DNA from: Armatimonas rosea
GTDB taxonomy: Bacteria > Armatimonadota > Armatimonadia > Armatimonadales > Armatimonadaceae
Assembly: GCF_014202505.1 (NCBI RefSeq)
Contig: NZ_JACHGW010000001.1
Location: 930,001 to 994,000, forward strand
Direction of reading: 5' to 3'
Length of the DNA: 64,000 nt
The position numbers were made by a program, and so were the translations under genes. Under the pieces are notes generated by a model that saw only the letters and a list, made by a program, of their open reading frames with translations, made no database searches and was not told where the DNA came from. Of the stretch, positions 32,683-34,407 are shown one piece after another. Every line of letters begins with the position of its first letter. Within the stretch, counting starts at the first letter, position 1.

Positions 32683-32684
32683 GT

Positions 32685-32757
32685 GGCCCCGTGGTCTAAA
32701 GGTCAGGATAGCGGTCTTTCACGCCGTTGGTGACGGGTTCAAGTCCCGCCGGGGCTA
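32685..32757 (+). tRNA. tRNA-Glu(TTC)
   Basis: Acceptor GGCCCCG/CGGGGCT, anticodon loop CTTTCAC, T-arm GACGGGTTCAAGTCCCGCC. No encoded CCA. First gene of the array, 2 nt after a terminator T-tract. Confidence 0.95.
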
Positions 32758-32774
32758 TGTGTGTTTTGTGTTTT

Positions 32775-32846
32775 GCGCCTGTGGTGTAGCGGTCAACATC
32801 TCAGACTGTCGCTCTGAAGAGGCGGGTTCGATTCCCGTCAGGCGCG
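32775..32846 (+). tRNA. tRNA-Asp(GTC)
   Basis: Acceptor GCGCCTG/CAGGCGC, anticodon stem TCAGA/TCTGA around CTGTCGC, discriminator G. No encoded CCA. Confidence 0.96.
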
Positions 32847-32851
32847 GTTAA

Positions 32852-32875
32852 TCTCTTGTAGCTCAGCTGGTAGAG
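32852..32875 (+). pseudogene. 5' fragment of tRNA-Asn (24 nt), left repeat of the inserted unit
   Basis: TCTCTTG plus TAGCTCAGCTGGTAGAG reproduces the acceptor 5' strand and D-arm of tRNA-Asn at 33307, with only the order of two bases changed in the acceptor; 19 nt are identical (32857-32875 and 33312-33330). It breaks off before the anticodon stem, exactly where the AT-rich unit begins. Joined to the 3' part of tRNA-Asn it would make a foldable tRNA, so it is the displaced original 5' end. Confidence 0.85.
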
Positions 32876-32910
32876 TTGGTTTGAAAACGAATGTTTGCTA
32901 TAATGCTAGC
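32876..32910 (+). promoter_or_regulatory. Leaderless promoter of the endonuclease gene
   Basis: TTGGTT (32876-32881), spacer of 17 nt, TATAAT (32899-32904), then 6 nt to the ATG at 32911. It starts at the very first base of the insert. There is no ribosome-binding site, so transcription probably starts at the start codon. Confidence 0.8.
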
Positions 32911-33306
32911 ATGGATACAAAGGCTAAAGGTGATCGTTCGGTAGCTATGATAATGGCAGCATTTATTAAGAAAGGTATGAACGTGCTAATACCTTTTGGA
33001 GACAACTGTCGTTATGATCTCGTGACAGAAAGAGATGGCATATTTTCAAAAATACAATGTAAAAGTGGAAGGCTCAAAAATGGAGTAGTTAAATTTAAGA
33101 CATGTAGCACATATTCACACAGAAATGGTGGGAGCCGAGATTATAAAGGAGAAGTAGATTTTTTTGGTGTTTATTGTTTTGAGAATGAGAAAATATATCT
33201 TGTTCCTGTTAATGATGTCGGAATTCGTATGGGAGTTCTGCGTATTGATGAAACGAAGAATTGCCAGACTAAGTTCGTTCGTATGGCGAATATATATGAG
33301 ATGTAA
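32911..33306 (+). CDS. PD-(D/E)XK endonuclease, I-Ssp6803I / PDDEXK_5-like
   Basis: 131 residues from ATG 32911 (MDTKAKGDRSVAMIM). The core fits the PDDEXK_5 family related to the homing endonuclease I-Ssp6803I, which cuts a tRNA-fMet gene: GD near the N-terminus (D8), PFGDNCRYDLV with Asp36, and IQCKSGR with Gln49-x-Lys51, the Q-x-K variant of the E-x-K motif. GEVDFFGVYCFENEKIYLVP is the usual C-terminal half. Codon use is AT-rich and foreign to the genome. The TAA stop ends at 33306, one base before tRNA-Asn. It likely cleaves tRNA-Asn-like DNA; activity is inferred. Confidence 0.85.
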   Translation: MDTKAKGDRSVAMIMAAFIKKGMNVLIPFGDNCRYDLVTERDGIFSKIQCKSGRLKNGVVKFKTCSTYSHRNGGSRDYKGEVDFFGVYCFENEKIYLVPVNDVGIRMGVLRIDETKNCQTKFVRMANIYEM

Positions 33307-33379
33307 TCTTCTGTAGCTCAGCTGGTAGAGCGCCGGTCTGTTAAACCGGATGTCGGGGGTTCGAGTCCCTCCGGGAGAG
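33307..33379 (+). tRNA. tRNA-Asn(GTT)
   Basis: Acceptor TCTTCTG/CGGGAGA (two G-T pairs), anticodon arm CCGGTCTGTTAAACCGG, T-arm with GGGTTCGAGTCCC, discriminator G. Complete and probably functional. Its first base directly follows the endonuclease stop codon. Confidence 0.95.
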
Positions 33380-33389
33380 TTTTGGGTTT

Positions 33390-33463
33390 GCCTTTGTAGC
33401 TCAATTGGATAGAGCAGTGGCCTACGAAGCCAACGGTTGCGGGTTCAACTCCTGCCAAAGGTG
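33390..33463 (+). tRNA. tRNA-Arg(ACG)
   Basis: Acceptor GCCTTTG/CAAAGGT, anticodon loop CTACGAA, T-arm GCGGGTTCAACTCCTGC. A34 would need TadA editing to inosine. Confidence 0.94.
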
Positions 33464-33488
33464 TTTAATTGCAAGTTTTGCAAGCTAA

Positions 33489-33569
33489 GGAAGGTGAATG
33501 TGCAAGGTGCACAGGCTGTCTTGAAAACAGCTCAGGCGAAAGCTGGGGGTTCGACTCCTCCGCCTTCCG
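33489..33569 (+). tRNA. tRNA-Ser(TGA)
   Basis: Acceptor GGAAGGT/GCCTTCC, anticodon stem GCTGT/ACAGC around CTTGAAA, class II variable arm, discriminator G as usual for serine. Confidence 0.93.
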
Positions 33570-33575
33570 TGTGAA

Positions 33576-33618
33576 CCCCGGCTCGCTGGGGCTCGCCACC
33601 CCTCGCAAGCGAAGGGTT
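33576..33618. repeat. 27-bp dispersed repeat with hairpins between two tRNA-Ser genes
   Basis: 33576-33602 (starting CCCCGGCTCGCTGGGG, ending CGCCACCCC) is identical, in reverse complement, to 58687-58713 inside the GH20 gene. It contains a hairpin CCCC..GGGG and is followed by a second hairpin CCCTCGC..GCGAAGGG (33600-33616). Confidence 0.85.
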
Positions 33619-33621
33619 TTG

Positions 33622-33713
33622 GGAGAGTAAACCTAGCAGGGGCTGGGACCTCGGTGCTAACGAGTGGGCGCAGGGCGAAAACTCTGCGTGCGGTTCGAGT
33701 CCGCTGCTCTCCG
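33622..33713 (+). tRNA. tRNA-Ser(GCT)
   Basis: Acceptor GGAGAGT/GCTCTCC, anticodon loop GTGCTAA, long variable arm (about 22 nt), discriminator G. Confidence 0.93.
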
Positions 33714-33736
33714 TTCCCCCCGGGAGGGGAGAATAT

Positions 33737-33809
33737 TCGTGGATGGTGTAATCGGCAACACGTCTGTTTCTGGAACAGAAAAGTCCTGGTTCGACTCCAG
33801 GTCCACGAG
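33737..33809 (+). tRNA. tRNA-Gln(CTG)
   Basis: Acceptor TCGTGGA/TCCACGA, anticodon stem TCTGT/ACAGA around TTCTGGA, T-arm CCTGGTTCGACTCCAGG. Confidence 0.95.
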
Positions 33810-33828
33810 CTTGGAAAACGGAAAATAG

Positions 33829-33902
33829 GCCCCTTTAGCCCAATTGGTAGAGGCGCATGGCTTAGGACCATGTCAGTGTGGGTTCGAATCCCATGGGGGG
33901 CA
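33829..33902 (+). tRNA. tRNA with Leu anticodon TAG but short variable loop
   Basis: Acceptor GCCCCTT/GGGGGGC, D-arm GCCC/GGC with loop AATTGGTAGA, anticodon stem CATGG/CCATG around CTTAGGA, G37, A73. The variable loop is only 5 nt (TCAGT), whereas bacterial tRNA-Leu normally has a class II arm. Length 74 nt. Anticodon and A73 point to leucine, but the amino acid is uncertain. Confidence 0.75.
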
Positions 33903-33972
33903 TCTACGCCCAATGAAATTAGGCGTTTGCAGTGCCACTGCAGACGCCGGGTTCAACCGGCGGTCTGGGATG
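33903..33972 (+). pseudogene. Degenerate tRNA-like sequence (Gly GCC-type anticodon arm)
   Basis: D-stem CGCC/GGCG, a perfect anticodon stem TTGCA/TGCAG around GTGCCAC (anticodon GCC), and a T-like arm GCCGG/CCGGC with a shortened loop. No acceptor stem can be paired. Likely a decayed tRNA or a structured tRNA remnant. Confidence 0.4.
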
Positions 33973-33973
33973 G

Positions 33974-34047
33974 TTGCAGGTGGTGTAATGGGCAACATGC
34001 CTGCCTTTGAAGCAGGAGATTTCCCGGTTCGAGGCCGGGCCTGCAAG
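33974..34047 (+). tRNA. tRNA-Gln(TTG)
   Basis: Acceptor TTGCAGG/CCTGCAA, anticodon stem CCTGC/GCAGG around CTTTGAA, T-arm CCCGGTTCGAGGCCGGG. Second glutamine isoacceptor in the array. Confidence 0.94.
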
Positions 34048-34073
34048 TCAAAAAAGAGAGAACGAAAGAGTTT

Positions 34074-34159
34074 GCCGGAGTGGTCGAGTGGTTCAAGACG
34101 GCAGCCTGCAAAGCTGCTGCGCCTTGTGCGTATCGCGGGTTCGAATCCCGCCTCCGGCT
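34074..34159 (+). tRNA. tRNA-Cys(GCA) with long variable arm
   Basis: Acceptor GCCGGAG/CTCCGGC, anticodon stem GCAGC/GCTGC around CTGCAAA, discriminator U73, which together with the GCA anticodon is the Cys identity set. The variable region is about 17 nt and can pair as TGCGC/GTGCG around CTT, giving an 86-nt class II shape instead of the usual class I form for tRNA-Cys. Confidence 0.85.
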
Positions 34160-34169
34160 TTTGGTTCGT

Positions 34170-34246
34170 GCCCCGGTTGCGTCCAATGGGTAGAGACACG
34201 CTGCTTAAGACAGTGAACGGTGTCGGTTCGAATCCGACTCGGGGCA
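34170..34246 (+). tRNA. tRNA with Leu anticodon TAA, short variable loop and irregular D-arm
   Basis: Acceptor GCCCCGG/TCGGGGC, anticodon stem CGCTG/CAGTG around CTTAAGA, T-arm GTCGG/CCGAC, A73. Variable loop about 6 nt. Four bases (TTGC) instead of two separate the acceptor from the D-stem. Leucine by anticodon, but the fold is unusual. Confidence 0.65.
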
Positions 34247-34251
34247 TTTTT

Positions 34252-34327
34252 CTCCCTGTACCCCAATTTGGTAGAGGGCGCACGTCGAGAGCGTGTGAAT
34301 GTGTCGGTTCGAGTCCGACCAGGGAGA
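34252..34327 (+). tRNA. tRNA with Leu anticodon GAG and short variable loop
   Basis: Acceptor CTCCCTG/CAGGGAG, TA at positions 8-9, D-arm CCC/GGG, anticodon stem GCACG/CGTGT around TCGAGAG, A73. Variable loop about 6 nt. With anticodon GAG, base 33 is C instead of U. Read as CGA (Ser) it would have U33 but a stem mismatch, so identity is uncertain. Confidence 0.65.
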
Positions 34328-34332
34328 CTTGT

Positions 34333-34406
34333 GGAGGGTGTGGCGAAGGGGTAAACGCGCCTGACTGTGGCTCAGGTAATCGCGGGTTCAAATCCCGTCA
34401 CTCTCC
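34333..34406 (+). tRNA. tRNA-His(GTG)
   Basis: Anticodon stem CCTGA/TCAGG around CTGTGGC. The acceptor has an extra G-1 pairing with C73, the histidine hallmark. T-arm GCGGGTTCAAATCCCGT. Last gene of the array. Confidence 0.94.
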
Positions 34407-34407
34407 C

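What the first reader, a model, noticed from the sequence alone, without database searches (positions are those of the whole stretch)
32852..33330. Minimal endonuclease element that splits and restores tRNA-Asn
Seen: a 431-bp AT-rich insert begins exactly after a 24-nt 5' tRNA fragment and ends at the base before a complete tRNA-Asn whose first 24 nt repeat that fragment (19 nt identical). It holds only a leaderless promoter and one PD-(D/E)XK gene with D36 and Q49-x-K51. Known: I-Ssp6803I, a Q-x-K PD-(D/E)XK homing enzyme, targets tRNA-fMet from within a group I intron. Inferred: this is an intron-less, integrase-less element that inserts into the tRNA D-arm region and carries a replacement 5' tRNA segment, so the host tRNA survives. 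I know of no described element this small with that strategy.
Basis: partly seen in the sequence, partly recalled or inferred. Interest (0 to 1): 0.88.

Follow-up and report, generated by a model that had tools for sequence, protein, structure and literature searches.

The report
Intronless endonuclease element in tRNA gene
A 431-base selfish-looking DNA insert carrying only a homing-endonuclease gene has split a bacterial tRNA-Asn gene, and the host keeps an intact tRNA because a replacement 5' tRNA piece sits at the far end of the insert; relatives of the gene sit against tRNA genes in several bacterial phyla and in phages, which points to an overlooked group of tRNA-targeting mobile elements.

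Summary
In an Armatimonadota genome a native 5' tRNA-Asn piece (32849-32875) is followed by a low-GC insert whose only gene encodes a PDDEXK_5 nuclease (Pfam E=5e-39; best solved relative I-Ssp6803I), then a complete tRNA-Asn whose 5' end repeats the piece (25/27 nt). A same-genus genome has the same tRNA array with an uninterrupted tRNA-Asn. No group I intron or integrase was found.

It is not a one-off. Of 56 intronless PDDEXK_5 genes collected (Armatimonadota, Chloroflexota, Patescibacteria, phages), 36 lie within 80 nt of a tRNA gene. Some relatives are clearer: a diverged tRNA-Ser 5' half upstream with an intact tRNA-Ser downstream, or phage pairs in which one tRNA half (or all of it) changed together with gain of the nuclease gene. 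The intron-lodged I-Ssp6803I lineage forms one branch.

Best explanation: intronless homing. The enzyme cuts a tRNA gene, and the repaired allele gains the nuclease gene plus a replacement tRNA segment. Cleavage was not tested, and in the window itself carriage cannot be told from local duplication. The break point and self-immunity are unresolved. Precedent: mORFs of fungal mitochondria. New variant of a known kind.

The parts
32849..32875 (+). Left repeat: native 5' end of the split tRNA-Asn (24 nt) with 3 nt of its leader
   Evidence: 25/27 identical to 33304-33330; acceptor half TCTCTTG equals the empty site in congener G001
32876..32893 (+). Possible decayed anticodon arm of the native half (TTGGTTTGAAAACGAATG); may instead be -35 promoter region
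   Evidence: Alignment to tRNA positions 25-48, p 0.004-0.04 by different nulls; suggestive only
32899..32904 (+). -10 hexamer TATAAT, 6 nt before the ATG (leaderless expression likely)
   Evidence: Sequence; the same spacing recurs in L187, L191, L193, L194 and, within one base or one spacing step, in L185, L188, L189, L192
32911..33306 (+). PD-(D/E)XK (PDDEXK_5) endonuclease gene, 131 aa, stop TAA inside the right repeat
   Evidence: Pfam E=5.4e-39; phmmer to 2ost I-Ssp6803I E=6.7e-10; Foldseek best 2ost E=6e-9 on a medium-confidence model
33304..33330 (+). Right repeat: replacement 5' tRNA segment (tRNA positions 1-24 plus the 3 nt before it)
   Evidence: 25/27 match to left repeat; two changes in the acceptor stem, pairing kept by G-U
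33307..33379 (+). Complete, apparently functional tRNA-Asn(GTT)
   Evidence: ARAGORN; Rfam RF00005 67.5 bits, the highest of the tRNAs in the window

Best explanation
This is an intronless homing element for tRNA genes. Its one protein is a PD-(D/E)XK homing endonuclease of the I-Ssp6803I family that recognises and cuts a tRNA gene (here tRNA-Asn). Repair of the break by recombination with an occupied allele brings in the nuclease gene together with one flanking tRNA segment, so that the broken tRNA is completed again: here the 5' segment, in other members the 3' segment or the whole tRNA. The displaced native half is left as a non-functional stub that decays. Shown: the sequence anatomy, the empty site in a congener, the family and catalytic residues, the recurrent placement against tRNAs, and exchanged tRNA parts with gene gain in phages. 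Inferred: DNA cleavage, its position, mobility today, and why the restored tRNA is not cut.
For: Nuclease family and residues. Uninterrupted tRNA-Asn in the syntenic tRNA array of congener G001. 36 of 56 intronless PDDEXK_5 genes within 80 nt of a tRNA, 31 within 25 nt, many isotypes; rough chance expectation about 1% for a bacterial genome (my estimate). Second PDDEXK_5 in the same genome directly follows a complete tRNA-Lys and is followed by a repeat of that tRNA's last 28 nt, mirror image of the window; the congener has that tRNA without the gene. L189: diverged tRNA-Ser(UGA) 5' half upstream, intact tRNA-Ser(UGA) downstream (covariance model 23.1 bits, E=0.0055). Phage phi-pp2 versus KVP40: gene present plus divergent tRNA-Met, flanks otherwise 99.8% identical. 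Jada versus MeganTheeKilla: tRNA-Ser identical through GGCGC, 3' part different and followed by the gene. My1 versus falkor: tRNA-Ile 5' part differs more than 3' part. Intron-lodged tRNA-fMet nucleases form one clade, 98/91.
Against: No cleavage or mobility was tested. In the window the two repeats differ by 2 nt only, so local duplication is possible. The restored tRNA has the same anticodon arm as the empty allele, so it should be cut unless the site includes acceptor positions 4-5 or the enzyme is silent. The N-terminal helix residue that is E11 in intron-type relatives is V here (also V, L, I or T in several free members). Recognisable stubs were found in few loci; most flanks show none. 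The genome has a second tRNA-Asn, so this tRNA need not be essential.
Confidence: 0.7

Rival explanations
1. A remnant or satellite of a tRNA-integrated element: the 27-nt repeat is an att duplication made by a tyrosine integrase acting in trans, and the nuclease is cargo.
For: Direct repeat of a tRNA end at both edges; in L007 (28/28 nt) and L005 (35/35 nt, within the anticodon-to-3'-end part) the repeats look like classical att sites.
Against: No integrase among the large ORFs nearby or in the 431-nt insert; integrase insertion keeps all target sequence, but in phages tRNA halves or the whole tRNA are exchanged; the one constant gene is a homing-endonuclease relative across many tRNA isotypes.
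Confidence: 0.1
2. A free-standing homing gene that merely settled beside a tRNA. The tRNA repeat is a local duplication made during break repair, and there is no carried segment or present-day mobility in this genome.
For: Repeats nearly identical and share the D-loop C that G001 lacks; most relatives lie beside tRNAs with no visible stub.
Against: Divergent paired halves in L189 and exchanged tRNA parts in phages show that tRNA segments travel with the gene.
Confidence: 0.16
3. A host-useful nuclease (defence or tRNA-cluster maintenance) that happens to be expressed from the tRNA array.
For: PADLOC, a defence-system library, holds a HEase model that matches (E=6.9e-12).
Against: Patchy: 7 of 291 genomes in the phylum; foreign base composition; no partner genes in the insert.
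Confidence: 0.04

Closest known systems
I-Ssp6803I (group I intron in cyanobacterial tRNA-fMet; PDB 2ost; Bonocora and Shub 2001 as cited in PMC3984707)
   Same: Same protein family, fold and D/Q-x-K residues; tRNA gene as target
   Different: Sits in a self-splicing intron in tRNA-fMet; here no intron, and the tRNA is rebuilt at DNA level by a repeated segment
Mobile ORFs (mORFs) of fungal mitochondria (Allomyces atp6; Glomus atp6, atp9, cox2, nad3; PMC3630166)
   Same: Endonuclease gene splits a host gene, brings a replacement terminal segment, native segment is left as a dead copy or replaced
   Different: LAGLIDADG or GIY-YIG enzymes, protein genes, mitochondria; here PD-(D/E)XK, tRNA genes, bacteria and phages; the 5' end can be the restored part
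Free-standing homing endonucleases with intronless homing, such as SegB of T-even phages beside tRNAs (PMC13096335, PMC3984707)
   Same: Free-standing nuclease genes enriched beside phage tRNAs; co-conversion of flanks
   Different: GIY-YIG; not described there as inserted into a tRNA with a restoring segment
[quoted passage not shown]
   Same: The 465-nt insert and the altered tRNA-Met were noted there
   Different: In the passages read, not recognised as a PDDEXK_5 gene or as homing

Membership tests
PDDEXK_5 / I-Ssp6803I-like endonucleases | Family profile and fold | tested here: met
   Pfam above cut-off, phmmer, Foldseek best hits 2ost (model pLDDT 70.7)
PDDEXK_5 / I-Ssp6803I-like endonucleases | Catalytic D and Q-x-K | tested here: met
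   D36, Q49, K51
PDDEXK_5 / I-Ssp6803I-like endonucleases | Site-specific cleavage of a tRNA gene | not testable with these tools
   Needs purified protein
Mobile group I intron | Group I intron core around the ORF | tested here: not met
   No Rfam intron hit in the window; the same library does find introns in L003 and L004
Free-standing homing endonuclease gene | Presence/absence at one site between close relatives | tested here: met
   G001 empty site; also phi-pp2/KVP40 and Jada/MeganTheeKilla
Free-standing homing endonuclease gene | Co-conversion of flanking target sequence | tested here: inconclusive
   Seen in phage relatives; window repeats too similar to tell
Gene-restoring mORF (fungal mitochondria) | Replacement terminal segment of the host gene plus dead native segment on the other side of the endonuclease gene | tested here: met
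   Repeats at 32849-32875 and 33304-33330
Gene-restoring mORF (fungal mitochondria) | Replacement segment diverged from the native one (foreign origin) | tested here: inconclusive
   2 differences in 27 nt here; clearly diverged in L189
tRNA-integrated island | Integrase gene | tested here: not met
   Insert holds one gene; nearby large ORFs look like housekeeping genes

The most novel reading that the evidence does not exclude
Intronless PD-(D/E)XK elements that home into tRNA genes of many isotypes and rebuild the tRNA with their own 5' or 3' segment are a widespread, unrecognised class of minimal mobile elements in bacteria and phages. They escape self-cutting by bringing a tRNA part with different stem sequence but the same pairing, and the tRNA-fMet group I intron enzymes are one branch of them.
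Probability: 0.5. Interest if true: 0.82.

Novelty: new variant of a known kind. Interest (0 to 1): 0.72.

Why it matters
It shows how an endonuclease gene may live inside an RNA gene without a self-splicing intron, by repairing the gene at DNA level. It offers a source for the nucleases found in tRNA introns, a reason why tRNA genes of bacteria and phages become chimeric, and a set of compact candidate tRNA-targeting nucleases whose sites can be inferred from occupied and empty alleles.

Tried and rejected
A group I intron spanning the insert: no Rfam hit. Close relatives of the window protein by pattern scan of genome contigs: none; plasmids: none. A pattern scan with the diverse alignment A1 was not possible. 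The automatic search for stubs by similarity to the adjacent tRNA gave a clear stub only in the window; other significant matches were neighbouring tRNAs, so a tRNA 5'-half covariance model was built; it added L189. The idea that anticodon-stem changes always mark occupied tRNA-Met genes in Chloroflexota was not upheld: some empty relatives share the same stems. The extension of the left stub through the anticodon arm in the window is only weakly supported and overlaps a possible -35 region. Reading the papers on I-Ssp6803I structure and SegB (PMC2040299, PMC2330249) was not possible.

Full report
Observation. The tRNA array at 32684-34407 holds tRNA-Asn at 33307-33379. Upstream, a 24-nt copy of its 5' end stands alone at 32852-32875; the repeat in fact runs from 32849 (and 33304) and is 25/27 identical. 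Between the two lies a 431-nt stretch of low GC (36% against 64% for the window) with a single gene, 32911-33306, whose stop codon lies in the right repeat. The similarity is beyond chance (no shuffle of 200 reached it). Same-genus genome G001 has the corresponding array Glu-Asp-Asn-Arg with an uninterrupted tRNA-Asn, and its 5' end (TCTCTTG) is that of the left fragment, not of the restored tRNA (TCTTCTG). So the left piece is native and the insertion is derived here (or was lost in G001).

The organism.

The protein. Pfam PDDEXK_5 matches the whole protein (E=5.4e-39); the best solved relative by sequence is I-Ssp6803I (2ost, E=6.7e-10), and a medium-confidence AlphaFold2 model (mean pLDDT 70.7) matches 2ost best (E=6e-9). 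In 40 aligned relatives D36 and Q49 are invariant and K51 nearly so. The position that is E11 in intron-type relatives is V here, as in several other free members; this is a caution on activity. PADLOC's HEase model also matches.

Relatives. PF11645 occurs in 7 of 291 genomes of the phylum, 20 of 400 Chloroflexota-centred genomes, 20 of 380 Patescibacteria-centred genomes, and in phages. A search with the intron-type pair found many more in Cyanobacteria, Bacteroidota, Nitrospirota and others; these I class as tRNA-fMet-intron type by close similarity to L003 and L004, which lie in Rfam-detected group I introns; I did not test each for an intron. Of 56 intronless genes, 36 are within 80 nt of a tRNA and 31 within 25 nt; many isotypes; tRNA at the gene's 3' end on the same strand (as in the window) in 17, at the 3' end on the opposite strand in 11, upstream in 8. 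Of the 20 others, several are first copies of tandem pairs (L160, L163, L164), lie at contig ends, or are distant family members. The tree puts all sampled intron-type enzymes in one clade (98/91) and all free ones outside it; it is unrooted and has few columns.

Mechanism from comparisons. (a) Same genome, L007: complete tRNA-Lys, then PDDEXK_5 gene, then the last 28 nt of that tRNA repeated; the congener has the tRNA alone. (b) L189 in Patescibacteria: a diverged tRNA-Ser(UGA) 5' half that runs through the anticodon arm stands upstream, an intact and different tRNA-Ser(UGA) abuts the gene's stop (model hit E=0.0055). (c) phi-pp2 and KVP40 agree to 99.8% around the locus, but phi-pp2 has the gene and a divergent tRNA-Met; the genome paper saw the insert and the altered tRNA-Met (PMC3468402). 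(d) Jada and MeganTheeKilla share the tRNA-Ser 5' part exactly to GGCGC, then differ to the 3' end, with the gene starting directly after the tRNA in Jada; the anticodon loop is the same, the stem sequence different. (e) My1 and falkor: tRNA-Ile 3' parts alike, 5' parts less so. These are what break repair with co-conversion from an occupied donor would leave, and they speak against a purely integrative mechanism, which keeps all target sequence. Fungal mitochondrial mORFs do the same with the ends of protein genes (PMC3630166), and intronless homing by free-standing enzymes is established (PMC3984707).

What remains open for the window. The insertion point: after the 24-nt fragment, TTGGTTTGAAAACGAATG aligns weakly with the anticodon arm (p 0.004-0.04 depending on the null), so the native stub may reach position about 44; it could equally be promoter sequence. 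The origin of the right repeat: only two differences, both in the acceptor stem and both pairing-neutral, and a D-loop base shared with the left copy but not with G001, so local duplication is not excluded. Self-immunity: the restored tRNA is intact across the insertion point, so a site that spans the junction must also include acceptor positions 4-5, which would be about 21-26 bp, near the 23-bp site that I recall for I-Ssp6803I (memory, not checked here); or the enzyme is silent. A second tRNA-Asn exists in the genome.

Expression. TATAAT ends 6 nt before the ATG; the same spacing recurs in several Patescibacteria members (L187 and L191 exactly; L185, L188, L189, L192 nearly). Leaderless genes are common in some of these phyla (my knowledge), so this is supporting, not diagnostic.

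Verdict. I rate it a new variant of a known kind: intronless homing with host-gene restoration, here with a PD-(D/E)XK enzyme in bacterial and phage tRNA genes. I found no description of it in the papers searched, a library that lacks most subscription journals.

Noticed in passing
L007 1938-2067 (minus strand), G000:C4:624771-624900; L202 about 1735-1863: tRNA-Lys(UUU) with a 58-nt (57 in the congener) insert in the anticodon loop, absent in other genera of the family. The insert is predicted to fold as a small nested cloverleaf with a T-arm-like hairpin in both species, despite base changes between them. Too short for a group I intron; how it would be removed is unknown.
   Followed up: partly
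L260 81-202 (minus strand), G000:C4:212680-212801: Apparent tRNA-Met with a roughly 49-nt anticodon-loop insert that again holds a long stem (GGAGAAG/CTTCTCC) and a possible T-arm-like hairpin.
   Followed up: partly
L160, L163, L164 (Chloroflexota): Two PDDEXK_5 genes in tandem, the second against a tRNA-Met in L160 and L163.
   Followed up: no
L005 1246-1911; L040 1225-1923: PDDEXK_5 domain fused behind a helix-turn-helix-like N-terminal part, located between a complete tRNA (Val, Asp) and a tRNA 3'-end-like fragment; in L005 the fragment repeats 35 nt of the tRNA-Val exactly.
   Followed up: partly
L273, L275, L276, L281, L284 versus L278-L298: In Chloroflexota, tRNA-Met genes next to a PDDEXK_5 gene lack the encoded CCA end, which most relatives without the gene have in full or in part.
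   Followed up: no
Streptomyces phage Forrest MZ820093.1 82501-83984: An HNH endonuclease is annotated at the tRNA-Ser locus where phage Jada has the PDDEXK_5 gene.
   Followed up: no
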